From assembly GCA_902805735.1 (NCBI GenBank), contig CADCTW010000153.1, positions 1 to 44,038 of the forward strand: DNA of 44,038 nt, in the 5' to 3' direction. The position numbers and the translations under genes were made by a program. Below the pieces are notes generated by a model. The model was not told the origin of the DNA. It did not search any database and saw only the letters and a program-made list of their open reading frames with translations. Of the stretch, positions 2,201 to 41,600 are shown one piece after another (within the stretch, counting starts at the first letter, position 1; the number at the start of each line of letters is the position of its first letter). The stretch comes from an uncultured Gemmatimonadota bacterium (GTDB lineage: Bacteria > Gemmatimonadota > Gemmatimonadetes > Longimicrobiales > Longimicrobiaceae).

Positions 2201-2264
2201 TCACACAGAGACACAGAGGCACAGAGAAAAAGCATCTTCTCTGTGCCTCTGTGTCTCTGTGTGA
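2201..2264. repeat. CACAGAG palindromic repeat, full-length copy A
   Basis: Two perfect 27-bp inverted arms (2201-2227 and 2238-2264) surround a 10-base loop. Each arm consists of CACAGAG units at 8-bp spacing. It lies between convergent genes, 12 bases after the amine oxidase stop and 6 bases from the toxin stop, so it could form a bidirectional RNA hairpin. It is identical, loop included, to the copy at 2954-3017. Confidence 0.95.
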
Positions 2265-2270
2265 GCCCGG

Positions 2271-2621
2271 TTACGGGATGGTCAGAAAGTAGCCGATTTG
2301 CGTGAGCGTCTGCCTGAGATACTTCGTCTCGACCGCGCCGAGCAGGCGCAGGAAGCGGGCAGCCGACACCGTGCGGATCTGGTTGGACAGGAGGTATGTG
2401 TCGTCCGCCACCCCACCAGTCCCCCGGGGGAGCTTGACCCGGCCCGGCAGGTTCTTGTGGGTTCGGGTACCCGGGACGACCATACAGAGGCCGGTCCGAT
2501 TGAGCTCGTTCCGGGAGACCACCAGCGCAGATCGGATTCCCTCCTGCTCGTGCCCTACAATCGGGCTGAAGTTCGCCATCCAGACCTCACCCTGGAGCGG
2601 TCCACGCACGGTCGCGCTCAC
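2271..2621 (-). CDS. MazF/PemK-type endoribonuclease toxin
   Basis: The 116-residue protein has the MazF-fold opening GEVWMANFSPIVGHEQ, followed by an arginine and a hydrophobic strand (SALVVS), as in PemK/MazF/ChpB toxins that cleave mRNA. The start is set to the GTG whose last two bases overlap the TGA of the upstream small gene (GTGA at 2618-2621). That 4-bp overlap implies translational coupling, and starting farther upstream would only add arginine-rich out-of-frame sequence. Length matches the family (about 110 residues). The gene ends 6 bases before a palindromic repeat. Activity is assumed from the fold; the sequence specificity of cleavage cannot be read. Confidence 0.88.
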   Translation of the reverse strand: MSATVRGPLQGEVWMANFSPIVGHEQEGIRSALVVSRNELNRTGLCMVVPGTRTHKNLPGRVKLPRGTGGVADDTYLLSNQIRTVSAARFLRLLGAVETKYLRQTLTQIGYFLTIP

Positions 2622-2815
2622 GCGGGCTCGTCCTCGAGGCCGTCCATCAGGGTTCCGTCCAGCGCACTCCACTCCGCGTCGAGCTCGGCGGATGCAGCGG
2701 GATCTTTGCGCAACTCCGCGTGCGCCTCTTCGTACTCCTTCAGGAACAGCTCGCAATCCCGATCGCGAGGAACCTGCCGCCCCGCAAGGGGAGCTTTCAG
2801 AGCCGATCGATCCAT
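2618..2815 (-). CDS. putative antitoxin of the MazF module
   Basis: A 65-residue acidic protein (ending DGLEDEPA) lies directly upstream of the toxin and overlaps it by four bases, the normal antitoxin-toxin arrangement. I do not recognise an AbrB/MazE swapped-hairpin motif or a clear ribbon-helix-helix; the function is inferred from position, size and acidity. Part of it (residues 22-40, rich in E, K and L) probably forms a helix that would dock on the toxin. The ATG at 2815 has a purine-rich AAGAGG sequence upstream. The first in-frame stop upstream and the promoter at 2860-2889 support this start. Confidence 0.7.
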   Translation of the reverse strand: MDRSALKAPLAGRQVPRDRDCELFLKEYEEAHAELRKDPAASAELDAEWSALDGTLMDGLEDEPA

Positions 2816-2846
2816 GATGCCTGCCTCTTAGGGAGAACCGGGCCGT

Positions 2847-2889
2847 CACTTACACGTGAAGTGTACCGACCCCGCGAATCTCCTGTCAA
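2847..2889 (-). promoter_or_regulatory. promoter and candidate operator of the toxin-antitoxin module
   Basis: On the minus strand a consensus -35 TTGACA (2884-2889) is followed after 18 bases by TACACT (2860-2865), 45 bases upstream of the antitoxin ATG. A 17-bp inverted repeat, CACTTACACGTGAAGTG (2847-2863), overlaps the -10 element, where a bound antitoxin or toxin-antitoxin complex would block RNA polymerase. The motifs are read directly; autoregulation is inferred from how such modules usually work. Confidence 0.7.
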
Positions 2890-2953
2890 CGGCACGTGCG
2901 TACACCGCTAAGTGCCCAACACAGATGCATTTGCGCTGGCGATTTACAAGCGC

Positions 2954-3017
2954 TCACACAGAGACACAGAGGCACAGAGAAAAAGCATCTTCTCTGTGCC
3001 TCTGTGTCTCTGTGTGA
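2954..3017. repeat. CACAGAG palindromic repeat, full-length copy B
   Basis: This copy is identical over 64 bp to the one at 2201-2264. It ends 11 bases from the ychF stop codon. Together the two copies bracket the toxin-antitoxin module. Confidence 0.95.
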
Positions 3018-3028
3018 GCCCCTTCTGT

Positions 3029-4129
3029 TCAGGCGCTGGTGCGGAACAGGAGGATGTCGCCGTCCTTGACGACGTACTCCTTGCCTTCGGAGCGCATCAG
3101 GCCCTGCTCGCGGGCGGTCTTCACGGAGCCCGTCTTCACGAAGTCGTCCCAGGCGACGGTCTCGGCGCGGATGAAGGCGCGCTCGAAGTCGGAGTGGATG
3201 ACGCCGGCGGCCTGCGGGGCGCGGGCACCCACGGGGATCTCCCAGGCGCGGACTTCCTTTTCGCCCGCCGTGAAGTAGACCTGCAGGCCCAGCAGGGCGT
3301 AGCCGGTGCGGATCAGGGTGTGGAGGCCGGGCTCGTTGAGGCCCAGCGACGAAAGGAACTCGTCGCGCTCCTCCGGGGGGAGCTCGGCAAGCTCGCTCTC
3401 GATCTTGCTGGAGATGGGGATGATCTCGGCGCGCTCGCCGCTCGCCGCCACGGCCGCGCGCAGGGCGCGCACGTGCTCGTTGTCGCCCTCGGGGAGGTCG
3501 TCCTCGGCCACGTTGGCCAGGTAGAGCACCGGCTTGCTGGTGAGGAGGTTGTACGAGCGCAGGATCTTCTCCTCCTCGTCGCTCGCGTCCACCACGCGCG
3601 CGGGCTGCCCGGCCCCCAGCGCCTCCAGCAGCCGCTCCAGCAGGCCCACCTCGGCCAGCGCCTCGCGGTCCTGGCTGCGGGCCGCCTTGCGGGCGCGGTC
3701 CAGGCGCTTCTCCACCACGGCGAGGTCGGAAAGGGCGAGCTCCAGGTTGATCACGTCGCGGTCGCGCACCGGGTCCACGCCCCCCATCACGTGCACCACG
3801 TCCGGGTCGTCGAAGCAGCGGACGACGTGCACCACCGCGTCCGTCTCGCGGATGTTGCTGAGGAACTGGTTGCCCAGGCCCTCACCCTGCGAGGCACCCT
3901 CCACCAGCCCGGCGATGTCCACGAACTGCACGACGGCGCGCAGCACGCGCTGCGGCTTCACCTTCTCGGCCAGCAGGTCCACGCGGGGGTCGGGCACCTC
4001 CACGTTCCCCACGTTGGGCTCCACCGTGCAGAACGGGTAGTTGGCCGCGTCCGCGCCGGCGGCGGTGAGAGCGTTGAAAAGGGTCGACTTCCCCACGTTG
4101 GGGAGACCCACGATCCCGAGCTTCAGCAT
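3029..4129 (-). CDS. ychF: redox-regulated ATPase YchF (Obg-family, ribosome-binding)
   Basis: The 366-residue protein starts MLKLGIVGLPNVGKST, which is the G1/P-loop of YchF. It has the G3 motif (DIAGLVEGAS) and, in place of the GTPase NKxD motif, NVAED, the change that gives YchF its ATP preference. The C-terminal TGS domain ends with a typical DGDILLFR segment. Length agrees with the family (about 363). YchF associates with the 70S ribosome and acts in translation and stress control. The ATG at 4129 is chosen because the P-loop must start within the first ten residues; the longer open frame upstream is a shadow. The gene is commonly next to pth; here hppA and two GH25 genes intervene. Confidence 0.97.
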   Translation of the reverse strand: MLKLGIVGLPNVGKSTLFNALTAAGADAANYPFCTVEPNVGNVEVPDPRVDLLAEKVKPQRVLRAVVQFVDIAGLVEGASQGEGLGNQFLSNIRETDAVVHVVRCFDDPDVVHVMGGVDPVRDRDVINLELALSDLAVVEKRLDRARKAARSQDREALAEVGLLERLLEALGAGQPARVVDASDEEEKILRSYNLLTSKPVLYLANVAEDDLPEGDNEHVRALRAAVAASGERAEIIPISSKIESELAELPPEERDEFLSSLGLNEPGLHTLIRTGYALLGLQVYFTAGEKEVRAWEIPVGARAPQAAGVIHSDFERAFIRAETVAWDDFVKTGSVKTAREQGLMRSEGKEYVVKDGDILLFRTSA

Positions 4130-5929: not shown

Positions 5930-5977
5930 CACGGAGGCACCGAGATCTTCTCTCTGTGCCTCCGTGCCTCTGTGTGA
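5930..5977. repeat. CACAGAG palindromic repeat, diverged copy
   Basis: The arms contain GGAGGCAC and GTGCCTCC variants, and the right arm is longer than the left. It ends 10 bases from the hppA stop codon, between hppA and the start of the GH25 lipoprotein gene. Confidence 0.85.
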
Positions 5978-5987
5978 GCCAATCAGT

Positions 5988-8126
5988 TCAGCCGCGCGGA
6001 ACGTCCCCCCCTGGCGCGGCCATCGATTCCTCCTGCACCGGCTGCGGGAGGGGGGTGACCTCCTGGCCGCGCAGGGAAAGGAACCAGGGCGCGAGCACCA
6101 GCGCGATCACCGCCATCAGCTTCACCAGGATGTTGAGCGCGGGGCCCGCCGCGTCCTTCATGGGATCGCCCACGGTGTCGCCCAGCACGGAAGCGTTGTG
6201 GATGTCGGAGCCCGGCGTCGTCTCCGGCTGCGCCTCGATCCACTTGCGCGCGCTGTCCCACGCGGCGCCCGCGTTGGTCATGAAGAGCGCGAGGAGGATG
6301 CCCGCCACCGTGGCGCCCACGAGCACCCCGCCGAGCGCCTCCGTCCCCAGCGCCGCGCCGACCGCCACGGGGATCAGGATGGCCAGGGCGAAGGGGGCGA
6401 TGGTCTCGCGCAGCGAAGCGTGCGTCGCCATGTCCACGAGGCGCCCCGAGTCCGGCTGCACCGAGCCGTCCATCAGCCCCGGCGTCTCCGCGAGCTGGCG
6501 GCGTGCCTCCGCGGACAGGATGGCGGCCGTGCGGCCCACGCCTGCCAGCGTCAGCGCCGCCACGAAAAAGGGCACGCCGCCGCCGATCAGCAGCCCCAGC
6601 AGCACGAAGGGGTGGATCAGGTCGATGGACTCCAGCCGCACGGCCGACGCGTACGCCGAGAAGAGGGCGAGCGAGGTGAGCGCCGCGGCTCCGATGGCGA
6701 TCCCCTTCCCCCCCGCCGCGGCGGCGCTGCCGGCGGCCTTGAGGCGCTGCGTGATGCCGCGCGTGTCGCTCCCCAGGTGGCTCAGGCGCGCGATGCCGCC
6801 CGCCGTGTCCGAGATGGCGGCGAAAGCGTTGAGCGTGATCGACACGGCCACCGTGGCCAGCATCCCCACCGCCGCCACCCCGATCCCGTACAGCCCCGCC
6901 GCCTCGTTCGCCAGCCAGGTGGCCGCCGCGATCAGGAGCAGGGGGAGCGCGGTGGACTCCATCCCCACCGCCAGCCCCATCAGGATGGCCGTGGCCGGCC
7001 CGCCGCGCGCCGCCTCCGCGATGCGCCGCATGGGGCGCGCGGCGGTGTAGAAATCCGTCGCCGCGCCGATGCCCACGGCCACCAGCACCCCGGCGCAGAT
7101 CGCCCAAAAGGGCCCGAAGCGGTGGTAGGTGCGGCCGGTTGCGTCTTCCAGGTCCAGCCCCAGCAGGCTCACCGTGACGAAGGCCAGCACCAGGAAGAGG
7201 GCAGCCGCGCCCAGCGTGGCCGCGCGCATGGCGAGGGCGGGATTGGTGTTCTTGATGGCCCGCACCGCGCCCAGCGCGATCAGCGAGGCCAGGAAGCCCG
7301 CCGCCGCCAGCAGCAGCGGGAGGGCGACCGCCTCCACGCGGTTGTTGGCGTAGGCCGCGCTGTACGCGCCCAGCGCCACGGTGGCCACGATGGCGCCCAC
7401 GTACGACTCCAGCAGGTCCACGCCCATCCCGGCGGTGTCGCCCACGCAGTCGCCAACGTTGTCGGCCACGGTGGCGGGGTTGCGCGGGTCGTCCTCGGGG
7501 AGGCCGGCCTCCGTCTTCCCCACCAGGTCGGCGCCCACGTCCGCCGCCTTGGTGAAGATCCCGCCGCCCATGCGCGCGAAGAGCGCCACCGACGACGCGC
7601 CCAGCGCGTACCCGGCCAGCACCTCGCCGAAGCGCGCGAACTGCTCGGGCAGGTAGGCGTTCTGGACGTAGATCAGCGCGAAGTACAGGGCGCCCAGCCC
7701 CACCAGCCCCAGCGCGGACACCGCCAGCCCCGCCACCGCCGCCCCGCCGAACGCCACGTGCAGCGCCGGGGTCTCGCCGGCCACGCGGGCGGCCTCGGCC
7801 ACGCGCACGTTGGCGCGGGTGGCAGCGTACATGGAAACCCATCCCACCGCCAGCCCCGTAGCCCCGCCCAGCGCGAACGCCCCGGCCGTGGCCAGCGAAG
7901 CGGTGGGCCACAGCAGGAGCGCGGCCACGGCGATGAAGGCGGCCAGGAAGATGGACTGCCTGCGTAGGAAGGCGTTGGAGCCGCGCTGGATCTGCACGGC
8001 CCAGTCGTTCATCGCCTCGTTGCCGGCGGGCTGCCGGCGGACGTACGAAAGGGCGCCAAACGCCAGCAGCAGCCCCACTACCCCCAGGGGCCAGCCGGTC
8101 CATGCGGTGAAGTCCGTCAGCGACAC
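5988..8126 (-). CDS. hppA: membrane-bound ion-pumping pyrophosphatase
   Basis: The 712-residue polytopic protein hydrolyses pyrophosphate and pumps H+ or Na+ across the membrane. The signature DVGADLVGKTE (about 196-206) is followed by EDDPRNPATVADNVGD with the Mg-PPi-binding aspartates. About 15-16 hydrophobic segments cover the length, and size is normal for the family. In the segment matching the GNTTxA region of other M-PPases it reads GSAAAAGGKG, placing alanine rather than lysine at the position that separates the subclasses. I infer the K+-dependent type; H+ versus Na+ is not decided. The start is a GTG at 8126. A heptamer repeat array lies immediately upstream and replaces any obvious promoter. 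Confidence 0.96.
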   Translation of the reverse strand: MSLTDFTAWTGWPLGVVGLLLAFGALSYVRRQPAGNEAMNDWAVQIQRGSNAFLRRQSIFLAAFIAVAALLLWPTASLATAGAFALGGATGLAVGWVSMYAATRANVRVAEAARVAGETPALHVAFGGAAVAGLAVSALGLVGLGALYFALIYVQNAYLPEQFARFGEVLAGYALGASSVALFARMGGGIFTKAADVGADLVGKTEAGLPEDDPRNPATVADNVGDCVGDTAGMGVDLLESYVGAIVATVALGAYSAAYANNRVEAVALPLLLAAAGFLASLIALGAVRAIKNTNPALAMRAATLGAAALFLVLAFVTVSLLGLDLEDATGRTYHRFGPFWAICAGVLVAVGIGAATDFYTAARPMRRIAEAARGGPATAILMGLAVGMESTALPLLLIAAATWLANEAAGLYGIGVAAVGMLATVAVSITLNAFAAISDTAGGIARLSHLGSDTRGITQRLKAAGSAAAAGGKGIAIGAAALTSLALFSAYASAVRLESIDLIHPFVLLGLLIGGGVPFFVAALTLAGVGRTAAILSAEARRQLAETPGLMDGSVQPDSGRLVDMATHASLRETIAPFALAILIPVAVGAALGTEALGGVLVGATVAGILLALFMTNAGAAWDSARKWIEAQPETTPGSDIHNASVLGDTVGDPMKDAAGPALNILVKLMAVIALVLAPWFLSLRGQEVTPLPQPVQEESMAAPGGDVPRG

Positions 8127-10808: not shown

Positions 10809-10865
10809 CACACAGACAGAGGCACAGAGATGAAGTCATCTCTGTGCCTCTGTGTCTCTGTGTGA
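10809..10865. repeat. CACAGAG palindromic repeat
   Basis: The inverted arms surround the loop TGAAGTCA; the left arm lacks one unit. It ends 11 bases from the rpmA stop codon and precedes the prs promoter. Confidence 0.92.
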
Positions 10866-14800: not shown

Positions 14801-14888
14801 CAGACTCTTTTATGTCGATTTGGGCGATTTCCGGACTTGCAAACCGGTGGAATGTACGGGGAGCGGAAGAAAACCGAAAGACGGGGGC

Positions 14889-14936
14889 TCACACAGAGGC
14901 ACAGAGGCACAGAGAAGACCTTCATCTCCGTGCCTC
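14889..14936. repeat. CACAGAG repeat, decayed copy
   Basis: The left arm is intact (CACAGAGGCACAGAGGCACAGAG) while the right arm is cut to about 13 bases, followed after about 20 bases by the paired-hairpin element. It is the one copy not next to a stop codon: it is about 90 bases upstream of the acyl-CoA dehydrogenase start. Confidence 0.8.
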
Positions 14937-17054: not shown

Positions 17055-17117
17055 CTCACACAGAGACACAGAGGCACGGAGACGACTTCATCTCTGTGCC
17101 TCTGTGTCTCTGTGTGA
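17055..17117. repeat. CACAGAG palindromic repeat
   Basis: The two 27-bp arms carry one mismatch (GGCACGGAG against GGCACAGAG) around the loop CGACTTCA. It ends 9 bases from the trxA stop codon. Confidence 0.93.
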
Positions 17118-17126: not shown

Positions 17127-17462
17127 TTACGCCGCGAGGAGCTGCTTGATCTTGTTCTCCAGCGCCGGGCGGGGGACCGCGCCGATCACCTGGTCCACCA
17201 CCTTGCCGTCCTTGAAGAACAGGATGGTGGGGATGGAGCGCACGTTGAACTGCGCGGCGCTGCGCTGGTTGTTGTCCACGTCCAGCTTGCCCACCGTCAC
17301 CTGGCCGGCGTACTCGTCCGCGAGCTGCTCCACGATGGGGGCGACCATGCGGCACGGCCCGCACCATACGGCCCAGAAGTCGACCATCGAGAGCCCCGGC
17401 TGCCCGGTGACCTCGCTGAAGTTGGCGTCGGTGATCTCCACTACGTTTGCGCTATCCGCCAT
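17127..17462 (-). CDS. trxA: thioredoxin
   Basis: The 111-residue protein has the thioredoxin fold with active site WAVWCGPCRMVAP and the cis-proline segment SIPTILFFKDG. It reduces disulfides of cytosolic enzymes using NADPH through thioredoxin reductase, which is not in this window. A strong AGGAAGGAT lies just upstream of the ATG. It is divergent from the epimerase gene, the two starts being separated by 103 bases that must hold both promoters; I could not read clear boxes there. Confidence 0.96.
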   Translation of the reverse strand: MADSANVVEITDANFSEVTGQPGLSMVDFWAVWCGPCRMVAPIVEQLADEYAGQVTVGKLDVDNNQRSAAQFNVRSIPTILFFKDGKVVDQVIGAVPRPALENKIKQLLAA

Positions 17463-17976: not shown

Positions 17977-17985
17977 AAACGGGGC

Positions 17986-18013
17986 TCACACAGAGGCACA
18001 GAGGCACAGAGAA
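17986..18013. repeat. CACAGAG repeat, single-arm copy
   Basis: Only the left arm is present. It lies between convergent stop codons, 9 bases after the mce stop and 5 bases from the stop of the lipoprotein gene. Confidence 0.9.
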
Positions 18014-18526: not shown

Positions 18527-18529
18527 ATC

Positions 18530-18592
18530 TCACACAGAGACACAGAGGCACAGGGAAACGGCTTTTCTCTGTGCCTCTGTGTCTCTGTGTGA
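18530..18592. repeat. CACAGAG palindromic repeat
   Basis: Full-length arms around a short loop with one change in the left arm (CACAGGG). It ends 2 bases from the clpB stop codon. Confidence 0.93.
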
Positions 18593-21204: not shown

Positions 21205-21282
21205 ATGTGCTCCTTTGGATCGGGCCTTGGGCCGCGGTCTAAAGGAAGTTCTGTGCCCGGCGAAACTGCCACAACGGCAGAC

Positions 21283-21309
21283 TCACACAGAGACACAGAG
21301 GCACGGAGA
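21283..21309. repeat. CACAGAG repeat, single-arm copy
   Basis: One arm only, ending 1 base from the yhaV stop codon and in the clpB upstream region. Confidence 0.9.
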
Positions 21310-21310
21310 A

Positions 21311-21841
21311 CTACATCAGAGCGGAGATGCGCTTGAGGCGGCGCACGGTGCCGGGGGTGGTGCATGCCTTCAGGAGGTCGTCCCCGTCGTCCGGTGGGTT
21401 GTCCTCGTCCAGCATGCGGGCGAAGGTGGCGTAGGCGTCCGTCGAGCTGCCGTAGGTCCGCAGGGAGCGCTCGTCGTTGACCCACGCAAAGATGAGGATG
21501 CGCTCCCGCAGCCGATAGCGGAAGAAGAGCCGGTACCGTCCGTTGCCGAACTTCGCGCGGAACCAGTGCTTCCGGCTGCCGCCAAGGGTGTGGCCCTGCC
21601 GGTAGGTGCTCCTCGTGGGGTCCGCCGGTACGTCCACGAACATCAGCTGCCGCAGGCTGGCGAGGATCTGGGCCGGCTGCGAGCGCTTGCCAGATCCCTG
21701 CTCCACCGCGGCGATCAGGCGTTCGAGCTGGAAGAGCAGCTCCGGGTGGAAGCCGATCCGCCAGCCGTTCACGGCGAAAAGCTCCGCCCCCGGATCGGGT
21801 ACGGAGCCGCTAGAGCTGGAAGTCGCCTTCGATCGGCGCAT
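21311..21841 (-). CDS. yhaV: YhaV-type endoribonuclease toxin
   Basis: The 176-residue protein matches the YhaV toxin of PrlF-YhaV modules: NGWRIGFHPELLFQLERLIAAVE near the start, then KHWFRAKFGNGRYRLFFRY and ILIFAWVNDERSLRTYGS, the RelE-like core that cleaves ribosome-associated mRNA. It begins 32 bases inside the upstream antitoxin gene in another frame, so translation is coupled. The start ATG at 21841 gives a serine-rich N-terminus before the conserved part, slightly longer than in E. coli. It ends one base before a repeat. Confidence 0.9.
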   Translation of the reverse strand: MRRSKATSSSSGSVPDPGAELFAVNGWRIGFHPELLFQLERLIAAVEQGSGKRSQPAQILASLRQLMFVDVPADPTRSTYRQGHTLGGSRKHWFRAKFGNGRYRLFFRYRLRERILIFAWVNDERSLRTYGSSTDAYATFARMLDEDNPPDDGDDLLKACTTPGTVRRLKRISALM

Positions 21842-22177: not shown

Positions 22178-22213
22178 AAGATAATCACCAACGCATCGAC
22201 TTCCAAGAGACAC

Positions 22214-22243
22214 TCACCTCTGTGCCTCTGTGTCTCTGTGTGA
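22214..22243. repeat. CACAGAG repeat, single-arm copy
   Basis: One arm (right-arm orientation on the plus strand) ending 3 bases from the MATE gene stop codon, upstream of prlF. Confidence 0.9.
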
Positions 22244-22246
22244 GAT

Positions 22247-23654: not shown

Positions 23655-23704
23655 CGGAGGCACAGAGACCGGCCTGGTCTCTGTGCCTCCGTGCCTCTGT
23701 GTGA
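23655..23704. repeat. CACAGAG palindromic repeat, shortened left arm
   Basis: The left arm has two units and the right arm three, around ACCGGCCTGGT, which extends the stem. It ends 10 bases from the M16 peptidase stop codon. Confidence 0.9.
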
Positions 23705-23714
23705 GACTACTTTA

Positions 23715-26546
23715 TTACCGCGCGGTTTCCGGCACCAGCACCACCTGCACGTGGTTCTGCGCGTCCAGGAAGCGGCGGGCCGCGGCCTGCAGCGACGCGG
23801 AGGTCACCCGCTCGGCCAGCGCGGCGTCGTTGGGGATCAGCCGCGGGTCCCAGCCCCGCGTGTCGTACGACACCAGGTTGCCCAGCCAGTACTGGTTGAG
23901 CCGCAGGTTGGTCTCCGCGTTGCGGCGCTGCGCCTCGCGCACCTTGGTGAGGTCCGCCTCGGGAACGCCCTCGCTCTTGATCCGGTCGATCTCGGCGAAG
24001 GTGGCGCGCACCAGCTCGTCCGCGCGGTCCGGCGCGGAGGTGAACTGCACGTTGAGCGTGTAGCTTTCCACCGGCAGGCGCGACACGGACCAGTTGACGC
24101 TGGCCGAATAGGTGCCGCCCAGCCGCTCGCGCAGGGCCTCGGTGAGGCGGATCTGCAGCAGCTCGCTCAGCGAGCGGAGGCCGTGGACTTCCTCGGGGCG
24201 CACCGGGATGGCGCCGGTGAAGGCGAGGCGCGTCATGCTCTTGGGCTCCGTGCCGCGCCGCACCGTCTTGCGCACCACGCCGCGCGGCGGGCGGATCCCC
24301 ATGTCGCGCGGGCTCTCGCGGCGGCCGGCGGCCGGGAGGCTCGCGATGTACTTCTCCACCAGCGGCTTGAGCGAGTCCGGCCGCACGCTGCCCACGAACA
24401 CGAAGGTGAAGTCGCCCGCGTCGGCGAAGCGGTCGCGGTAGAAGGCCAGCGAGCGGGCGAGGTCCTGCGCTTCCACGGTGGCCGCGTTGAACGGCCGGGC
24501 GCGCGCGTGGCCCTGCGCCATCGTCACCTGCACCGTGTCCTGGAAGGCGGACTCGGGGTTGGCGTCGCGGTTGCGCAGGAAGCCGCTCATCTGGTTCTTG
24601 AACGCCGCCGCGGCCTCCGCGTCCGCGCGGGGCGCGGTGAAGTGGAGGTGGATGAGCTGGAAGAGCGTCTCCAGGTCCTTGGGCGACCCGCCGCCGCCCA
24701 GCCCTTCCTCGGTGCCGGAGATGAAGGGGTTGACCTGCACCGCCTTCCCGGCCAGCGCCTTCTGGAGCTGCACGCGGCTCATGGAGCCCACGCCCCCCGC
24801 CGCCACCGTGGCCGAGGCCATGGAGACCGCCGGGAAGTCCGCGTCCGAGGCCAGCGAGGTGCCGCCGGGGCTGTAGGCGCGGAAGAGCACCTCGTCCGCC
24901 TTGAACTCGGTGGGCTTCACCACGACCCGCGCGCCGTTGCTCAGGCGCCACTCGATGGTGCCGATCGCGTCCGTGCGCCGCTCGGAGACCACGCGGCCGG
25001 CGCGCGGCGCGTTGGCCAGGAGCGGGGCGGTCGCCACGTTGTCCACGTACGCCGCCACGGCCTTGCCCCGCACCTGCGCGAAGGCCGCGGCGAGCGCCTG
25101 CTCGGTGGGGAGGGTGACGCCCGCCTTCTGCGGGCCGTTGGCCATGACCACGCGGTTCTGGTCCGTGATCAGCTCGCGCGCCAGCCGGTTCACCTCCTCC
25201 AGCGTCACGCCCGGCACCAGCGCGCGGTGCATCTCGTACGAGGCGGCCGGCCCGGGGACGGGCTCGCCCTGCAGGAAGTGCGCGACGTAGCGGTCCACGA
25301 TCTGGGCGGAGCGCATCTTCTCCCGCTCGGCGTACGCCCGCTCCGCGCCGCGCAGCAGCTCGGTTTTGGCGCGCTCCAGCTCCGACGCGGTGAAGCCGTG
25401 CTGGCTCACCCGCTCCGCTTCGGTGAGCAGCGAGGTGAGCGCCGGCTCCACCCCGTTCTCCTTCGCGATGGCGTACAGTGTGTAGCTTTCCAGCGTGCGC
25501 ACGCTGCGCCCCTGGTTGGCGAAGGCGGCCACGAACGGAGCGTTGGGCGAGCGGGTGATCTCGTCGAAGCGCGCGTTCAGCATGGCGTCGTGCAGCCCCT
25601 CCACCACGCCGCGCCGGAAGTCGGCCACGGTGCGGGTGGGGCGCGCCGGGTGCTGGAAGCTCACCTGCACGGTGGTGTTGGTCGCCTCCGGGTCCGTGAC
25701 CACGGAGAAGCGCGGCTCCGCGTGCGGCGGCACCTGCATCACCGGGCGCGGCGGGGCCGAGCGCGGCGCGGCGAGGGAGCCGAACTTCTCGCGGATCAGC
25801 GCCTCGGCGCGCGCCGGGTCGATGTCGCCCACCACCACCACCGCCATCAGGTCGGGGCGGTACCAGTCGGTGTAGAAGCGGCGCAGGTCGGCCGCCGAGA
25901 AGGTCTGCAGCGACTCGCGCGTGCCGATGGGGAGCCGCTCGGCGTACGCGGACCCGGCGAACTCCACCGGGAACTGCTTGAGCGCCATGCGCATCCCCGC
26001 CCCGCGGCCGCGGCGCCATTCCTCGATCACCACGCCGCGCTCGCGCTCGATCTCCTCGTCGTCCAGCATCTGCCCGCCGGCCCAGTCCGCCAGGATCTGG
26101 AAGCCGCGCTCCACCACCCGCGCGCTGTCCGTGGGAAGGGGGAGGATGTAGACGGTCTCGTCGAACGAGGTGTACGCGTTGAGGTGCGCGCCGAACTGCA
26201 CGCCCACGGACTGGAGGTAGTTGACCAGCTCGTTCTTGGCGAAGTTGCGCGTCCCGTTGAACGCCATGTGCTCCAGGAAGTGCGCCAGGCCGAGCTGCTT
26301 GGGATCCTCCAGCACGCTCCCCGCGTTCACGGCCAGGCGCAGCTCCACGCGGTTGGGCGGCTCGCGGTTGGGCTGGATGTAGTAGCGCAGGCCGTTGGGC
26401 AGCGTCCCCGTGCGCACCGCGGGATCCAGGGGGATCTCCTGCGTGAGGGCGGGCTGCTGCTGGGCGACGAGCGGCGCCGGCGCGGGCGCCACGAAGGCGA
26501 GCGCCACGGCGGTGACTGCCGCCGGGAAGCGGATCATGTGTCGCAT
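23715..26546 (-). CDS. secreted M16-family zinc metallopeptidase (two M16 halves)
   Basis: The 943-residue protein has a signal peptide (MRHMIRFPAAVTAVALAFVAPAPAPLVAQ) and four M16 lobes in two halves. The first half has the inverted zinc motif HFLEH (HFLEHMAFNGT) with the third ligand glutamate in IERERGVVIEEW about 75 residues on. The second half lacks a zinc motif and serves as the non-catalytic partner, as in single-chain pitrilysin/insulinase relatives. It would cut peptides in the periplasm or outside the cell. The start at 26546 and the ATG at 26537 are equally possible; neither has a good Shine-Dalgarno sequence. Confidence 0.92.
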   Translation of the reverse strand: MRHMIRFPAAVTAVALAFVAPAPAPLVAQQQPALTQEIPLDPAVRTGTLPNGLRYYIQPNREPPNRVELRLAVNAGSVLEDPKQLGLAHFLEHMAFNGTRNFAKNELVNYLQSVGVQFGAHLNAYTSFDETVYILPLPTDSARVVERGFQILADWAGGQMLDDEEIERERGVVIEEWRRGRGAGMRMALKQFPVEFAGSAYAERLPIGTRESLQTFSAADLRRFYTDWYRPDLMAVVVVGDIDPARAEALIREKFGSLAAPRSAPPRPVMQVPPHAEPRFSVVTDPEATNTTVQVSFQHPARPTRTVADFRRGVVEGLHDAMLNARFDEITRSPNAPFVAAFANQGRSVRTLESYTLYAIAKENGVEPALTSLLTEAERVSQHGFTASELERAKTELLRGAERAYAEREKMRSAQIVDRYVAHFLQGEPVPGPAASYEMHRALVPGVTLEEVNRLARELITDQNRVVMANGPQKAGVTLPTEQALAAAFAQVRGKAVAAYVDNVATAPLLANAPRAGRVVSERRTDAIGTIEWRLSNGARVVVKPTEFKADEVLFRAYSPGGTSLASDADFPAVSMASATVAAGGVGSMSRVQLQKALAGKAVQVNPFISGTEEGLGGGGSPKDLETLFQLIHLHFTAPRADAEAAAAFKNQMSGFLRNRDANPESAFQDTVQVTMAQGHARARPFNAATVEAQDLARSLAFYRDRFADAGDFTFVFVGSVRPDSLKPLVEKYIASLPAAGRRESPRDMGIRPPRGVVRKTVRRGTEPKSMTRLAFTGAIPVRPEEVHGLRSLSELLQIRLTEALRERLGGTYSASVNWSVSRLPVESYTLNVQFTSAPDRADELVRATFAEIDRIKSEGVPEADLTKVREAQRRNAETNLRLNQYWLGNLVSYDTRGWDPRLIPNDAALAERVTSASLQAAARRFLDAQNHVQVVLVPETAR

Positions 26547-31395: not shown

Positions 31396-32643
31396 ATGCG
31401 CGCCTCGCTCCACACCGCCATCGCCGCCGCGATCCTCGCCACTCCGCTCGCGGCGCAGCAGTCCGCGCGCGTGCCCGACGGGCCGGGCGTGCGCAGGGCG
31501 CTGGCGTACGCCGTCCGCACCGAGCCGCAGACCATCGAGGAGCAGATCGCCATCTGCGAGATCGAGGCGCCGCCCTTCAAGGAGGCCCGCCGCGCCGCGG
31601 ACTACGTGCGCCGCATGCAGGCGCTCGGACTGCGCAACGTGCGCATCGACTCCGTTGGCAACGTGATCGGCGAGCGCCCCGGCGAGCCCGGACAGCCCGT
31701 GATCGTCATCTCCGGCCACCTGGACACCGTGTTTCCCGAGGGCACGGACGTGCGGGTGAAGCGCGAGGGGACGATGCTGCGCGGCCCCGGCATCGGTGAC
31801 GACTGCCGCGGGCTGGCGGTGGTGCTGGCCGTGGCGCGGGCCATGAACGACGCGCAGCTGCGCACCCGCGGCACCGTGCTCTTCGTGGGGACGGTGGGCG
31901 AGGAGGGCGCCGGCAACCTGCGCGGCGTGCGCCACCTCTTCGAGAAGGAGCTGCGCGGCCGCGTCACGCACTTCATCTCGGTAGACGGCACCGGCTACAC
32001 GATGACCAAGGACGCGGTGGGGAGCCACCGGTACCGGGTCGCCTTCAAGGGCCCGGGCGGCCACAGCTACGGCGACTTCGGGATGCCCAACCCCACCCAC
32101 GCCCTCGGCCGCGCCATCGCCCGCATCGCCGACTTCCAGGTCCCGTCCGACCCCAAGGTCACCTTCAGCGTGGGCGTGGTGCAGGGCGGCAGCTCGGTGA
32201 ACGCCATCGCGGCGGAAGCGAGCATGCTGGTGGACATGCGCTCCGTGGACCCCGCCGCGCTGGACTCCGTGGACGCCCGCTTCCAGGCCGCCGTGCGCCA
32301 GGCCGCGGAGCAGGAGAACGCCCGCTGGCCCGGCAGCACCGCCCGCGTGACGGTGGAGGTGCAGAGCACGGGCATCCGCCCCGCCGGCACCCAGCCCGCC
32401 GACGCCCCCATCGTCCGCGCCGCGCGCGCCGCCGGCGAGCGCCTCGGCTTCACCCCGGCGGCCACACCGTCCAGCACGGACGCCAACATCCCGATATCGA
32501 TGGGCATCTCGTCGCTGACCATCGACGCGGGCGGCACCGGCCAGGGCGCGCACTCCCTCGCCGAGAGCTGGGACTCCGCGGGGAGCGAGAAGGGCACGCA
32601 GTGGGCGCTGCTGCTGGTGCTGACGCTGGCGGGCATCCGCTAA
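31396..32643 (+). CDS. secreted M20-family metallopeptidase
   Basis: The 415-residue protein has a short signal peptide (MRASLHTAIAAAILATPLAAQ) and the M20 di-zinc ligands: GHLDTVFP (H and catalytic D), GIGDDCRG (bridging D), GEEGAGN (catalytic and ligand E), VDGTGY (D) and a C-terminal GAHS (H). A dimerisation lid domain carries the conserved GGHSYGDFG. It resembles PepT or carboxypeptidase G2 type enzymes that release amino acids from short peptides; the exact substrate is not readable. It fits the set of secreted peptidases in this window. Confidence 0.92.
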   Translation: MRASLHTAIAAAILATPLAAQQSARVPDGPGVRRALAYAVRTEPQTIEEQIAICEIEAPPFKEARRAADYVRRMQALGLRNVRIDSVGNVIGERPGEPGQPVIVISGHLDTVFPEGTDVRVKREGTMLRGPGIGDDCRGLAVVLAVARAMNDAQLRTRGTVLFVGTVGEEGAGNLRGVRHLFEKELRGRVTHFISVDGTGYTMTKDAVGSHRYRVAFKGPGGHSYGDFGMPNPTHALGRAIARIADFQVPSDPKVTFSVGVVQGGSSVNAIAAEASMLVDMRSVDPAALDSVDARFQAAVRQAAEQENARWPGSTARVTVEVQSTGIRPAGTQPADAPIVRAARAAGERLGFTPAATPSSTDANIPISMGISSLTIDAGGTGQGAHSLAESWDSAGSEKGTQWALLLVLTLAGIR

Positions 32644-32651
32644 AAAGCAAT

Positions 32652-32706
32652 CTCACACAGAGGCACAGAGGCACAGAGAAGAAGTTCGTCTCTGTGCCTC
32701 TGTGTC
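32652..32706. repeat. CACAGAG palindromic repeat, interrupted
   Basis: It starts 8 bases after the M20 peptidase stop. The left arm is complete; the right arm stops after TGTGTC, where a different hairpin element begins. Confidence 0.88.
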
Positions 32707-32709
32707 GGT

Positions 32710-32771
32710 GGCCCTCACCCGGCGGCCTGATAGCCGCCACCCTCTCCCAGTAACTGCCCTGGGAGAGGGGA
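32710..32771. repeat. solitary two-stem hairpin arm (paired-hairpin family)
   Basis: It contains GGCGGCCTGATAGCCGCC and CTCTCCCAG TAACTGCC CTGGGAGAG, the arm type also at 15097-15157 and 42721-42782 but in opposite orientation. It truncates the neighbouring CACAGAG repeat and abuts the stop codon of the broken hydrolase gene. Confidence 0.85.
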
Positions 32772-37381: not shown

Positions 37382-37412
37382 GCTCCTCTGTGTCTCTGTG
37401 CCTCTGTGTGAG
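37382..37412. repeat. CACAGAG repeat, single-arm copy supplying the priA ribosome-binding site
   Basis: One arm spans the gap between the dipeptide epimerase stop (7 bases away) and the priA TTG. In the sense of transcription it ends CACAGAGGAG just before the start codon. Confidence 0.85.
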
Positions 37413-37419: not shown

Positions 37420-38454
37420 TTATCGGCGCGTAACCCCCAGCCCGGGCGCGTCGTTGAAACGCAGGCTCCCGTCCGCCTCGATCCCCGGCCCCTCGAAGGG
37501 ATCGTTGGCGAGGAGGGCGGCGCCGTCCAGGTCCACGAAGTCTACCAGGGGTGTCAACTGCACGGCGGCGGCGATGCCCAGGGTCGACTCGATCATGCAG
37601 CCGAGCATCACCTGCATCCCGTGCGCGCGCGCCGCGTGGACGATGCGCAGCGCTTCGCGCAGGGAGCCGCACTTGGCGAGCTTGATGTTCACGCAATCCA
37701 CCACGCCGGCCAGCTTGGCCACGTCCGCCGCCACCTCGCAGCTCTCGTCCGCCACCACCGGGAGGCGCGAGTGCTCGCGGACCATGCGCAGGCCCGCCAG
37801 GTCGCCCTTTGCCACCGGCTGCTCCACGAAGGAGACGCCGAACTCCTCCAGCATGGGGATCAGGCGGATGGCTTCCTTGGTGGTCCACCCCGTGTTGGCG
37901 TCCACGTACAGCGTCTTCTCGGGCGCTTCTTCGCGGATCATGCGCAGGATCTCGGCGTCGCGCGGGGTGCCCACCTTGATCTTGAGGATGGGGTACGACG
38001 CGGCCTCGCGCACCTTTTGCCGCATCACCTCCAGCTCGTCGATGCCGATGGTGAACGACGACTTCGGCGCGGCGGCCGGGTCCAGCCCCCAGAGCTTCCA
38101 CACGGGCACACCAAGCCGCTTCCCCACCAGGTCGTGCAGCGCCGCCGAGACCGCCACCCGCGCCGCCGGGTTCCGCCCGATGTGCATCGCCAGCGCCGCC
38201 TCGATCCGCTCCAGCGCGAACGGATCGCCCTGCCCGGCATCCTCCAGCACCCCCGCCAGCCCCGGCAGCACCGCCGCCACCGTATCCACCGTCTCCCCGT
38301 AGAACGGAGTCGCCGGCGCCTCGCCCCACCCCTCCACCCCATCGTCATCAGTAACGCGCACCCACACCGTGCGCCGCGTGGGCGGCTCCTTCATCCGCGC
38401 GATGTTGAACGCGTGCTTCGTCCGCAGGTCGAGTATCTGGAAGTCGAGCTTCAT
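37420..38454 (-). CDS. dipeptide epimerase (enolase superfamily)
   Basis: The 344-residue protein belongs to the muconate-lactonising subgroup. It shows the catalytic K-x-K (PILKIKVG), metal ligands in YVDANTGW, SFVEQPV and VVADES, the second lysine in NIKLAKCG, and a C-terminal FVDLDGAALLANDPF segment that shapes dipeptide specificity. It epimerises L-Ala-D/L-Glu or related dipeptides, as in murein peptide recycling or peptide use. The ATG at 38454 fits the family start MKLDFQILDL. It is probably co-transcribed with priA. Confidence 0.92.
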   Translation of the reverse strand: MKLDFQILDLRTKHAFNIARMKEPPTRRTVWVRVTDDDGVEGWGEAPATPFYGETVDTVAAVLPGLAGVLEDAGQGDPFALERIEAALAMHIGRNPAARVAVSAALHDLVGKRLGVPVWKLWGLDPAAAPKSSFTIGIDELEVMRQKVREAASYPILKIKVGTPRDAEILRMIREEAPEKTLYVDANTGWTTKEAIRLIPMLEEFGVSFVEQPVAKGDLAGLRMVREHSRLPVVADESCEVAADVAKLAGVVDCVNIKLAKCGSLREALRIVHAARAHGMQVMLGCMIESTLGIAAAVQLTPLVDFVDLDGAALLANDPFEGPGIEADGSLRFNDAPGLGVTRR

Positions 38455-39473: not shown

Positions 39474-40693
39474 CCCAGGAATGGGTCGTCCCGCAGCAGC
39501 GCGTAAAGGCCACGCTGCGGACGCTCGGTGGTCACCTCGGGCCCGTTCGAGCCGATGAACATGTTGACCTCCGAGCGGAAGCCAACGTCGCCCGGGAGGT
39601 AGATCCCCGGCTCGATGGAGAAGCCGACGCCCGGGATCAGAGTGCGTGTGTCGCGCGTTTCCAGGTTGTCGATGTTGGGGCCGGAGCCGTGCAGCTCGCG
39701 GTCGATGGAGTGGCCCGTGCGGTGGATCACGTTGGCGCCGAAGCCGCGCGCCTCGATGATCCCCCGCGCGACGTCGTCCACCTCGAAGCCGGAGACGGCG
39801 TTCCCCGCGGCGAAGCGGTCGATCACCGCCGCGCACGCGGCCTCGCGCGCCTCCACCAGCACCCCGAACATCTGCTCCAGCCGCTCGGGGATGGTGTCGC
39901 CCACGAAGGCCATCCACGTCTGGTCCGCGTAGATGGCGTCGTCGTTCTCCTTCCCCCACAGGTCGATCAGCACGAGGTCGCCCGCCCGGATCTCCGCGTG
40001 GTGATCCGCGGATGGCGCGTAGTGCGCGTTGGCGGCATTGGCGTTGACCGCGACAATGGTGTCGCCGCCCACCTGGAGCCCGCGGCGCAGGAGCTCGCCC
40101 TGGATCCACTGGCGGATCTCCCACTCGCTCGTCCTCCCCTCCGCGCGGACGGCGGCGGCGATGCGCTCGAAGGCGGCGTGCGCCGTCTCGCGCACGGCCG
40201 CGGAGGCGCGGCGATGGCTGGCTTCACCTTCCGCGGACCAGCGGGCGGTGAAGAAGGAGATCAGGTCGCCGGACCCCTCCGGCTCGGCCCCGGCGGCGCG
40301 CACCATCTCCACCACGCCGGCGGGGACGCGGTCCACCACGGGGACGGCGTCGCCGGGCGTGTACTCCATCGCCAGCCGCCCCATCCCGCCGCAGATGGAG
40401 GCCAGCTCCGCCTCCATCTCGCGCCACGACGAGTACACGCGCTTGTCACCCGTCCACGTGGTCCACGGCTGCTGCTCGATGCGGTGCGTGAGCGCGACAG
40501 GCGTGCCGCGCGCGGGGACCAGGACGAAGTAGCGCCGCGTGAGCGCCGGGAGCCCCAGCAGGGTGCCGGCCACGGGGTTCTGCCCGCGGAAGTCGTAGAG
40601 GAGCCAGCCGTCCAGGCCGCGCGCCAGGAGCTCTTCCTGGATGCGCGCGACGGTCTCGGCGGTGAGGGCGACGGTCTGTTCGGTGACGGCCAT
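39470..40693 (-). CDS. M24-family Xaa-Pro aminopeptidase
   Basis: The 407-residue protein has an N-terminal creatinase-type domain and a C-terminal pita-bread domain. Its five metal ligands are in place: LIDLWGKENDDAIYAD (two Asp), the His of VIHRTGHSID, and the two Glu in FSIEPGIY and RSEVNMF. It removes N-terminal residues preceding proline, or is a related dipeptidase; there is no signal peptide, so it is cytosolic. It lies between a methyltransferase gene (12 bases upstream) and the GvpF-like gene (4-base overlap). Confidence 0.93.
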   Translation of the reverse strand: MAVTEQTVALTAETVARIQEELLARGLDGWLLYDFRGQNPVAGTLLGLPALTRRYFVLVPARGTPVALTHRIEQQPWTTWTGDKRVYSSWREMEAELASICGGMGRLAMEYTPGDAVPVVDRVPAGVVEMVRAAGAEPEGSGDLISFFTARWSAEGEASHRRASAAVRETAHAAFERIAAAVRAEGRTSEWEIRQWIQGELLRRGLQVGGDTIVAVNANAANAHYAPSADHHAEIRAGDLVLIDLWGKENDDAIYADQTWMAFVGDTIPERLEQMFGVLVEAREAACAAVIDRFAAGNAVSGFEVDDVARGIIEARGFGANVIHRTGHSIDRELHGSGPNIDNLETRDTRTLIPGVGFSIEPGIYLPGDVGFRSEVNMFIGSNGPEVTTERPQRGLYALLRDDPFLG

Positions 40694-40705
40694 TTCCAGT
40701 CTGCG

Positions 40706-41518
40706 TCAGAGGTTTTCAGCGGCTTCCGGCGTCCAGCGCGTGCCTTTGATCATCGTGAGCCCCAGCACCCGCTCGCGGGTGAGGAGGCGGTGGATCTCAC
40801 GCTCGCGGACGATGGCGCCGCGCACTCCGCGCCACCCCCACCGCCGCAGCGCGCGGCGCAGGATCGCCACCTTCTCGCGGAAGGTGAAGATCTCGCTGAA
40901 GTCCGGGAACGGCCCGCCCGCCGAAGGACGAAAGGGCGAGGGCGCGTCGGACCAGTCTTCGACGGTCAGGTCCACCACCCCCGCGTCGCGCAGGAGCTGC
41001 TTCCATTCGACCAGGATCAGCGGGCGCGCGCCCAGGTGCTGCACCAGGATCTCGCGGCGCTCGGGGTCCACGTTCCCCGTCCAGATGAGCTGCACCAGCA
41101 CCACGCACCCGAACGGCTTGGTGACGCGGGCCAGCTCCGCCACCGCCCGCCGCGGATCCGCCAGCGCCGCCAGCCCCAGCTCGCCGATGGCCACGTCGAA
41201 GATGCCGTCCTTGTACGGAAGGTCGTCGAGCGCGCCGGCCTCGAAGGCGAGCGGCACGTCCGGCATCTCTTCGCGGGTACGGCGCTCGGCCTCGGCCACC
41301 AGCACCGGGTCGGCATCCACGCCCACGCAGTGCACGCCGAACGACGCCAGGAAGCGGGTGGAGACGCCGCGCCCGCAGGCGGCGTCCAGCACCTCCATCC
41401 CGGAGCTCATCTCGGTGAGGCTCGCGATCTTCCGGTACAACGCCTCGCCGCCGGGCGGAAACACCGCCTCGCGGCTCAGGCGCACCAGGTCCAGCATGGA
41501 GGGAACGTGCGACGACAT
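40706..41518 (-). CDS. SAM-dependent class I methyltransferase
   Basis: The 270-residue protein has the SAM-binding motif I EVLDAACGRGVSTRFLA, motif II CVGVDADP, and a motif-III region around DGIFDVAIGELGLAALADPRRAVAELARVTKPFG. The substrate is not identifiable; the fold resembles UbiE/COQ5-type enzymes. A basic C-terminal tail (RRALRRWGWRGVRG) is unusual and could contact nucleic acid or membrane. It is the first gene of a tight three-gene unit with the M24 peptidase and the GvpF-like protein. Confidence 0.9.
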   Translation of the reverse strand: MSSHVPSMLDLVRLSREAVFPPGGEALYRKIASLTEMSSGMEVLDAACGRGVSTRFLASFGVHCVGVDADPVLVAEAERRTREEMPDVPLAFEAGALDDLPYKDGIFDVAIGELGLAALADPRRAVAELARVTKPFGCVVLVQLIWTGNVDPERREILVQHLGARPLILVEWKQLLRDAGVVDLTVEDWSDAPSPFRPSAGGPFPDFSEIFTFREKVAILRRALRRWGWRGVRGAIVREREIHRLLTRERVLGLTMIKGTRWTPEAAENL

Positions 41519-41571
41519 GGGGGTGGAGTATAGGGCGGGAGTCCCCCGGTCGCCAGCGGTGAACGGATTGG

Positions 41572-41600
41572 CTCACACGGAGGCACAGAGACACAGAGAG
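41572..41600. repeat. CACAGAG repeat, single-arm copy
   Basis: One arm with a single change (CACGGAGG), ending 3 bases from the stop codon of the HDAC-like gene and upstream of the methyltransferase. Confidence 0.9.

What the first reader, a model, noticed from the sequence alone, without database searches (positions are those of the whole stretch)
2201..41600. CACAGAG octamer palindromes anchored next to stop codons
About 14 copies occur, at 2201, 2954, 5930, 10809, 14889, 17055, 17986, 18530, 21283, 22214, 23655, 32652, 37382 and 41572. They are built from CACAGAG units at 8-bp spacing, either as a two-armed palindrome or as one arm. Thirteen of them end within about 1-12 bases of a stop codon. 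Hairpin terminators would explain the full copies, but the single-arm ones form no hairpin, and both orientations relative to the gene occur. This suggests a targeted insertion or copying process that recognises gene ends, or strong selection against other sites.
Basis: seen in the sequence. Interest (0 to 1): 0.85.

Follow-up and report, generated by a model that had tools for sequence, protein, structure and literature searches.

The report
Octamer hairpins that cap gene ends
A bacterium of the genus Longimicrobium carries very many copies of a short hairpin, built from three repeats of an 8-base unit on each arm, sitting close against the ends of genes where relatives often have ordinary transcription stop signals; the same unit recurs in unrelated bacteria, and what copies it is unknown.

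Summary
In detail: 14 CACAGAG-octamer elements, 13 of 14 within 2-14 nt of a stop codon. In 676,506 bp of the same genome there are 162 elements; 113 of 153 intergenic ones lie within 15 nt of a facing stop, against 9.4 expected (maximum 22 in 1000 placements). They occur in 44 of 56 convergent gaps but 11 of 68 divergent gaps.

Nine congeners have 0-125 three-unit matches against 1208 here. At 23 comparable gene ends, 11 show a canonical terminator in at least one congener, 6 an octamer-type element, 7 neither nor an array. At 9 of 14 comparable gaps the 3' flank is non-homologous, with homology ending near the stop. Seven of 32 palindrome-bearing convergent gaps are exactly 75 bp, the element alone.

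Best reading: a REP-like family of short palindromes, amplified in this lineage, whose octamers recur in other phyla, kept where a 3'-end hairpin can stand in for a terminator. Solo arms may be an older, decaying subfamily. No mobiliser was identified. Targeted insertion is possible but unproven. New variant of a known kind.

The parts
2201..2264 (.). two-arm palindrome, 3+3 octamers, loop AAAAAGCATCTT, between convergent stops (14 and 9 nt)
2954..3017 (.). two-arm palindrome, 3+3 octamers, same loop as the 2201 copy, 14 nt from the stop of the gene 3029-4129 (-)
5931..5979 (.). palindrome with diverged left arm (CACGGAGGCACCGAG), 13 nt from the stop of the gene 5988-8126 (-); two congeners have an octamer palindrome here too
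10809..10865 (.). two-arm palindrome, 14 nt from the stop of the L27 gene 10877-11188 (-); stands where three congeners have 158-174 nt with a terminator and 7-mer arrays
14888..14935 (.). three-unit arm with, by eye, a short diverged partner; the only window copy not next to a stop
17055..17117 (.). two-arm palindrome, 12 nt from the stop of the thioredoxin gene 17127-17441 (-); stands where two congeners have about 400-490 nt
17985..18013 (+). solo arm that fills a 42-bp convergent gap (12 and 7 nt from the two stops); one congener has a CGCGGAG octamer palindrome here
18529..18592 (.). two-arm palindrome, 5 nt from the stop of the gene 18595-21204 (-)
21282..21311 (+). solo arm, inner side 2 nt from the stop of the gene 21311-21772 (-)
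22213..22244 (-). solo arm, outer side 6 nt from the stop of the gene 22247-23638 (-)
23655..23706 (.). palindrome with a shortened 3' arm followed by T residues in the sense of the gene 23715-26537 (-); aligned straight through in three congeners
32651..32712 (.). two-arm palindrome (3+2), 12 nt after the stop of the gene 31396-32643 (+)
37382..37412 (-). solo arm, 11 nt from the stop of the gene 37420-38454 (-); one congener has a GGGGAAT heptamer array at the same place
41572..41600 (+). solo arm, inner side 5 nt from the stop of the gene 41604-42467 (-)

Best explanation
It is a REP-like family of short palindromic elements. Each arm is CTC-(NCACAGAG)x3; two arms face each other across a loop of usually 10 nt, with a degenerate tail (A-rich, then GCGGGG) before the arm and its mirror after it. 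Shown: about 1,200 copies by extrapolation, many more than in any of nine congeners, placed close to stop codons; at 9 of 14 comparable gaps the 3' flank is not homologous to the congeners'. Inferred: the two-arm form makes a very stable RNA hairpin that ends or protects the transcripts of one or both flanking genes and could stand in for the native terminator; copies survive mainly where such a hairpin is harmless or useful. Inferred: solo arms are mostly an older subfamily in which one arm was lost. Inferred: the arms are recognised by sequence by some copying or binding factor, because they stay nearly invariant even in solo copies while loops and tails diverge. The factor was not found.
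For: Position: 113 of 153 intergenic elements within 15 nt of a facing stop (null 9.4); elements in 44 of 56 convergent, 93 of 255 co-directional, 11 of 68 divergent gaps of 40 bp or more (convergent against divergent P=1e-12); two-arm forms are 37 of 48 elements in convergent but 1 of 11 in divergent gaps (P=5e-5). Replacement: 9 of 14 comparable gaps are non-homologous between the stop region and the next gene's 5' region, the own segment being shorter at 6, equal at 1, longer at 2; 11 of 23 element-bearing ends have a strict canonical terminator in at least one congener against 2 of 23 in this genome; coding identity is kept to the last codons (0.74 against 0.78); convergent gaps median 76 bp against 194-443 in four congeners (8-26 ends each), and 17 of 32 palindrome-bearing ones are 69-81 bp, 7 exactly 75. 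Hairpin: median RNA energy -57.5 kcal/mol for 76 palindromes with 12-nt flanks; the variable letters of the two inner units match the other arm better than in 1000 shuffles (71/76 against mean 60.7, max 69; 57/76 against 47.3, max 56). Older solos: pattern xGA in 21 of 51 solos and 8 of 127 palindrome arms (P=9e-8), with fewer exact units (2.21 of 3 in one-arm xGA against 2.78 in palindromic xAG).
Against: No transcript data. The T-rich tail lies roughly 5-10 nt outside the stem, not directly after it, and a strict terminator was scored at 26 of 177 element ends, about the rate at congener ends without elements. Similarity of the first 80 nt after the stop to congeners is at random level at element ends (median 8, random 9), but own non-element ends with gaps of 80 bp or more are also poorly conserved (median 15), so the contrast is weaker than a first comparison suggested (33.5, inflated by short gaps running into the next gene). 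Five of 14 comparable gaps align through in at least one congener. Only 20 of 49 non-majority letters of the left arm are matched in the right arm, outer flanks are not complementary beyond chance, and inner loop positions do not covary. Up to 65 of 162 elements are solo arms that form no such hairpin, yet most also lie near stops. No copying enzyme was found. Gene calls come from my script and the 676 kb were not chosen at random.
Confidence: 0.55

Rival explanations
1. Targeted copying at gene ends: an unknown machinery, perhaps acting through the RNA (for example cDNA of a transcript end recombining back), places the array directly after stop codons and removes the old 3' flank in the same event.
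For: Outer ends face a stop at a narrow distance (129 of 151 within 16 nt, median 12) and inner ends in 16 of 39; palindrome-filled convergent gaps cluster at 69-81 bp (17 of 32) and solo-filled ones at 37-49 bp (6 of 11); convergent gaps without the element are not shortened (median 220 against 75, 13 gaps); homology often ends near the stop; TAA stops 58 of 162 against 29 of 205 at non-element ends with gaps of 40 bp or more (P=2e-6).
Against: Insertion followed by deletion and selection gives the same end state. The tail belongs to the element also where no stop faces it (GTT in 38 of 75 against 60 of 125). REPs show the same stop adjacency. Gaps without the element hold other repeat families. 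Stop codons are not clearly more often changed at element ends than at other ends with gaps of 80 bp or more (same stop in 19 of 36 and 29 of 46 pairs; per end 7 of 15 against 8 of 37, P=0.096). Five of 14 comparable gaps align through. In G064 only 4 of 7 co-directional copies are nearer to the stop.
Confidence: 0.14
2. Host-evolved terminators only: no mobility; selection and gene conversion homogenised the stems of ordinary bidirectional terminators.
For: Sites are those of terminators; some copies have a shortened 3' arm and a T-tract like ordinary terminators; 6 of 23 ends have an octamer-type element in a congener too.
Against: Few or none in most congeners; the same octamer arms in other phyla; sequence kept in solo arms that form no hairpin (174 of 206 units exact).
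Confidence: 0.13
3. Solo and paired arms are binding sites of a sequence-specific protein or RNA-binding factor (for example a chromosome or RNA-processing factor); position at gene ends is secondary.
For: Arms nearly invariant while loops vary (68 distinct loops of 76); preference for three units (53 of 76 palindromes are 3+3).
Against: No candidate factor; conservation is also what recent copying gives; elements are rare in genes and divergent gaps (5 of 162 in CDS, 11 in divergent gaps).
Confidence: 0.11
4. DNA-uptake-type signal sequences, which in Neisseria and Haemophilus also form inverted pairs at gene ends (recalled, from no call).
For: High copy number and inverted pairs near stops.
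Against: Units are not scattered in coding sequence: 52 of 54 window units lie in arrays and 5 of 162 elements in CDS; the unit is a triple array, not a single word.
Confidence: 0.02

Closest known systems
REP elements (GTAG- and CGTC-tagged repetitive extragenic palindromes), PMC3733652 (abstract and section 15 seen)
   Same: High-copy short palindromes, mostly between convergent or co-directional genes, often less than 20 bp from gene ends; termini of GTAG REPs may supply the stop codon.
   Different: No GTAG/CGTC tag in most flanks (GTAG or CTAC 6, CGTC or GACG 10 of 152), stem built of three tandem octamers, solo-arm forms, no transposase clearly tied to it.
Heptamer arrays GGGAATC of Xanthomonas and GGGGA(C/T)T of Nostoc, PMC4692102 (abstract, sections 3, 13, 14 seen)
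   Same: Short intergenic arrays of 7-bp units, under-represented between divergent genes, many within 50 bp of stop codons, single or in inverted pairs.
   Different: Here period 8, mostly three units, no G-tracts; the Xanthomonas repeats are mostly conserved in place between two relatives (83%), these mostly not.
TAACTGA heptamer repeats of Beggiatoaceae, PMC4679880 (abstract and outline seen)
   Same: Short direct repeats with a patchy distribution across lineages that suggests transfer without an evident mechanism.
   Different: Most of them sit just before start codons and are direct repeats; these sit after stop codons and about half or more are inverted pairs.
Bidirectional intrinsic terminators (general knowledge)
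   Same: Hairpin between convergent genes with A-rich and T-rich flanks.
   Different: Stem sequence is shared by copies across the genome and by other phyla; the T-rich tail is roughly 5-10 nt away from the stem.

Membership tests
REP elements | more than 100 intergenic palindromic copies per genome | tested here: met
   162 elements in 676 kb, 76 plainly two-armed, 5 in CDS; about 1,216 by extrapolation
REP elements | located at 3' ends in convergent and co-directional gaps | tested here: met
   as described in PMC3733652 section 15
REP elements | GTAG or CGTC tag at one end of the palindrome | tested here: not met
   GTAG or CTAC in 6, CGTC or GACG in 10 of 152 16-nt outer flanks
REP elements | cognate Y1 (RAYT) transposase gene flanked by the same palindrome | tested here: inconclusive
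   two Y1_Tnp genes, each with its own different palindromes directly beside it. But CACAGAG elements also lie about 245 nt before and 156 nt after the Y1 match in L063; 35 of 548 called genes have an element within 300 nt on both sides, so this is not unusual. Y1 number does not follow element number. Assembly 86% complete.
Intrinsic terminators | GC-rich hairpin followed directly by a T-tract | tested here: inconclusive
   26 of 177 element-bearing ends pass the scan, shuffles 0-1%; the T-rich tail usually lies a few nt further out
Intrinsic terminators | transcripts end there | not testable with these tools
   no RNA data
G-quadruplex heptamer arrays | G-tracts repeated with a 7-nt period | tested here: not met
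   unit NCACAGAG, period 8, mostly three units
MITE | terminal inverted repeats with target-site duplication and a parent transposon | not tested
   inverted arms are present; duplications were not looked for, and no parent beyond the Y1 and reverse-transcriptase families was sought
DNA uptake sequences | single short word dispersed also in coding sequence | tested here: not met
   52 of 54 units in the window lie in arrays; 5 of 162 elements in CDS

The most novel reading that the evidence does not exclude
A copying machinery that acts at gene ends: it rewrites everything from the stop codon to the next gene's 5' region with a standard octamer hairpin, and related machineries with other 7-8-bp units do the same in other species, so that gene-end arrays are swapped wholesale between lineages and the units travel between phyla.
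Probability: 0.11. Interest if true: 0.93.

Novelty: new variant of a known kind. Interest (0 to 1): 0.6.

Why it matters
If right, one lineage has given a large share of its gene ends the same mobile-looking hairpin, in places where relatives have ordinary terminators: a case of wholesale turnover of a regulatory part by repeats, testable against living sister species. It also draws attention to short arrays of 7-8-bp units at gene ends, which recur with the same sequence in distant phyla and for which no copying enzyme was found here.

Tried and rejected
Cognate RAYT as mobiliser: not supported but not excluded. Each of the two Y1_Tnp genes has its own, different palindromes directly beside it; in L063 CACAGAG elements also lie on both sides within 300 nt, as they do for 35 of 548 called genes. 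Y1 counts (0-6 per congener, own 2; G003 has 6 and no three-unit match) do not follow element number. Reverse transcriptases: the genome has a group II intron maturase and a Drt6/Drt4-like gene; no octamer pairs within the 3.6 and 3.4 kb fetched. Loss of Rho as a reason for new terminators: Rho domain found in 10 of 10 genomes, own and nine congeners. Solo arms as ends of a larger composite: neighbouring solos show no excess of facing pairs (+- 8, -+ 9, ++ 20, -- 16). Local copying judged from loops: identical loops 2 of 33 pairs within 5 kb against 17 of 2817 others, too few to conclude. Element-made new C-termini: coding identity holds to the last codons. Stop codons swapped by the element: seemed so at first (same stop 19 of 36 against 57 of 75), not clearly once short gaps are set aside (29 of 46). 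Known RNA family: no Rfam match at gathering threshold in the window. tRNA: none in the window. Literature: literal searches of octamer strings found one unrelated paper each; in the listings of the term searches I saw no description of this array; only the held open-licence papers were searched. Context of foreign loci by greedy ORFs was judged unreliable (63 of 171 arms fell inside greedy ORFs) and is used only for flank consensus.

Papers: PMC4692102 abstract and sections 3, 13, 14; PMC3733652 abstract, outline and section 15; PMC4679880 abstract and outline; PMC12306157 passages found by term; all others only as search listings. The ribosome-stalling study is known only through the passages of PMC12306157.

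Odds changed for it: best explanation 0.58 to 0.55, targeted copying 0.17 to 0.14, novel case 0.13 to 0.11, host-evolved terminators 0.10 to 0.13, binding site 0.10 to 0.11; interest 0.62 to 0.60.
Full report
1. The observation. The window (44,038 bp; G+C 67-74% in 4-kb steps) holds 54 CACAGAG units against 5.66 expected. All 14 listed sites are real arrays at 8-bp spacing. With genes called by a codon-usage script 13 of 14 have an array edge 2-14 nt from a stop codon, and 10 of 10 scanned proteins next to elements match Pfam families. The genome belongs to the same genus as a deposit titled Longimicrobium sp. YPbin7: handle G004 (same genus) and the genome of locus L057 (G188) show identical match places.

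2. Anatomy. In 676,506 bp from 14 contigs (not a random choice: triple-unit density 0.238 per kb against 0.209 in the whole assembly) there are 162 elements: 76 with two plain arms, 86 with one. Of these 86, 21 keep a diverged partner arm, so at most 65 are solo. All 76 two-arm elements, as clustered, have the arms facing inward; 53 of 76 are 3+3 units; the loop is 10 nt in 42 of 76. Reading out of an arm the consensus is CTCTGTG-TGAGCCCCGCTGTTT; the tail is present whether or not a stop faces it (GTT in 60 of 125 and 38 of 75; 14% in control windows). Arms are nearly invariant (388 of 431 units exact in palindromes, 174 of 206 in solos) while loops are diverse (68 distinct of 76). Pairing: the letters between units match the other arm better than any of 1000 shuffles at the two inner units; the other variable positions do not exceed the shuffles clearly, only 20 of 49 minority letters are matched, the outer flanks are not complementary beyond chance, and inner loop positions do not covary. 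Solo arms differ in the letters between units (xGA 21 of 51 against 8 of 127) and one-arm xGA copies have fewer exact units (2.21 of 3) than palindromic xAG arms (2.78), one-arm xAG lying between (2.61). I read this as an older subfamily that has lost arms; a separately moving solo form is not excluded.

3. Position. Five of 162 lie in called CDS. Of gaps of 40 bp or more, 44 of 56 convergent, 93 of 255 co-directional and 11 of 68 divergent hold at least one element (convergent against divergent P=1e-12). In co-directional gaps 83 of 94 elements are nearer to the stop, median 13 nt against 81 nt to the called start. Against uniform placement in gaps, 113 of 153 within 15 nt of a facing stop compares with a mean of 9.4 (max 22); with each element kept in its own gap, mean 55.9 (max 67). 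Two-arm forms are 37 of 48 elements in convergent, 55 of 94 in co-directional and 1 of 11 in divergent gaps. Outer ends face a stop at a median of 12 nt (129 of 151 within 16 nt), inner ends in 16 of 39 within 16 nt. A second genome of another family in the class (G064, 420 kb) has 13 elements: 6 in convergent gaps (17 such gaps), 7 in co-directional (123), 0 in divergent (36), 0 in CDS; there only 4 of 7 co-directional copies are nearer to the stop, so the tight spacing is not repeated.

4. Comparison with congeners. Three-unit matches: own 612+596; G005 54+71; G006 23+21; G001 6+12; G004 9+4; G009 1+1; G002, G003, G007, G008 none. For 23 own gene ends that bear an element an orthologous end was found. 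In at least one congener 11 of 23 have a strict canonical terminator (13 by a looser rule), 6 an octamer-type element, 3 a 7-8-bp array, 7 none of these; in this genome 2 of 23 pass the strict and 15 the looser rule, the latter presumably because the element's own hairpin counts. Whole-gap alignments exist for 14 sites: 5 align through in at least one congener; at the other 9 the flank is non-homologous, homology ending near the stop and in some cases resuming 50-100 nt before the next gene. The own segment is shorter at 6 (e.g. 10809: 73 nt against 158-174; 17055: 86-94 against about 400-490), equal at 1 and longer at 2. Similarity of the first 80 nt after the stop is at random level at element ends (median 8 against 9 for random pairs). 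The fairer control, own non-element ends with gaps of 80 bp or more, is only slightly better (median 15); two congeners compared with each other at the element ends give 45, but how close they are to each other relative to this genome was not measured. So replacement rests on the aligned sites and terminator counts more than on this score. Convergent gaps have a median of 76 bp (75 with element, 220 without) against 369, 194, 443 and 247 in G006, G005, G009, G008, from 26, 18, 10 and 8 ends. Of 32 convergent palindromes 17 lie in gaps of 69-81 bp and 7 in gaps of exactly 75; of 11 convergent solos 6 lie in gaps of 37-49 bp. Coding identity at element ends is 0.74 in the last three codons and 0.78 in codons 21-40. 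TAA stops are enriched (58 of 162 against 29 of 205 at gaps of 40 bp or more, P=2e-6); stop codons are not clearly more often changed than at comparable ends (same stop 19 of 36 and 29 of 46 pairs).

5. Distribution. The fifteen genomes behind 16 of these loci, one of them the Longimicrobium, have 1 to 180 three-unit matches; backward controls are 0-2. A viral-contig scan lists 80 further stretches; whether these are phages or host DNA was not tested. Across 171 foreign arms (partly conditioned on the search pattern) the outer flank is A-rich at -8 to -13 and mostly ends TT(A/C)AC or TCA before the first unit, a layout like the one here. In 150 genomes of the phylum a broader octamer (CRCRRAG) triple occurs in 26, mostly in few copies, with 61+61 in G064 (control 4+0), 41+40 in G009 (0+1) and 27+24 in G156 (0+0). 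Arrays of other periods: own gaps hold 138 of period 8, 27 of period 7, 4 and 3 of periods 5 and 6, none of 9-12; G005 and G006 have 12 each of period 7 with other units and 5 and 4 of period 8.

6. Mechanism. Shown: many more copies than in congeners, non-homologous 3' flanks at 9 of 14 comparable gaps, position close to stops, conserved arms. Inferred: two-arm copies act as 3'-end hairpins (median -57.5 kcal/mol) that allow loss of the native terminator; divergent gaps tolerate almost only solo arms. Unknown: the copying enzyme. Y1 transposases, reverse transcriptases and Rho gave no lead. Insertion with later deletion, and direct targeted replacement, both remain. That convergent gaps without the element are not shortened speaks for a link between element and replacement, but those gaps (13) often hold other repeat families.

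7. Known or new. Stop adjacency, convergent preference and stop-supplying ends are described for REPs (PMC3733652 section 15; PMC12306157 passages), and intergenic 7-mer arrays near stops for Xanthomonas and Nostoc (PMC4692102). This family lacks the REP tag, has no clearly cognate transposase in this assembly and is built differently. It works like a REP and is not filed as a member. The octamer strings were not found in the held papers; most subscription journals and preprints are not held.

Noticed in passing
L033, L034, L047, L048, L054, L061 (Defluviitaleaceae MAG Th196P3bin142; genome handle G175): 89+91 three-unit arms, many as inside-out pairs (CTCTGTG arm first, then CACAGAG) around a similar AT-rich spacer of about 70 bp: looks like a separate MITE-like family.
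   Followed up: partly
own genome C1:53842 and congener loci L091-L094, L097: Other 7-bp arrays at gene ends (GCCTAGT, AAGTGCY, GGGGAAT), some in inverted pairs; periods 7 and 8 lead among intergenic arrays of this genus while periods 9-12 are nearly absent.
   Followed up: partly
own genome gaps, e.g. C1:78815-79030, C2:43800, C3:8497: A CCCTCACCC / CCCTCTCCC inverted family above a base shuffle (43+48 and 56+58 against 8 and 6 on one strand), with dozens of matches in G005 and G006, filling gaps without CACAGAG elements.
   Followed up: partly
congener loci L092, L094 (site of window 17055): A palindrome beginning GTCATCCTGAG; the word occurs 6 times in 115.5 kb of G005, 4 in 195.5 kb of G006, once in 676.5 kb of this genome.
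   Followed up: partly
L062 and L063: Two Y1 transposase genes, each with its own REP-like palindromes beside it; L063 also has CACAGAG elements within 300 nt on both sides.
   Followed up: partly
L247:1333-2289 (-): Reverse transcriptase related to Drt6/Drt4 defence enzymes, 318 aa, matching only about the first 300 positions of the longer models.
   Followed up: no
window 21311-21772 (-): Gene matching Pfam Toxin_YhaV, with a solo arm 2 nt from its stop.
   Followed up: no
L220-L239 (G064): In another family of the class the arms have TTGC ends, and in some gaps two arms flank a longer interior that by eye is itself inverted: a larger relative of the element.
   Followed up: partly
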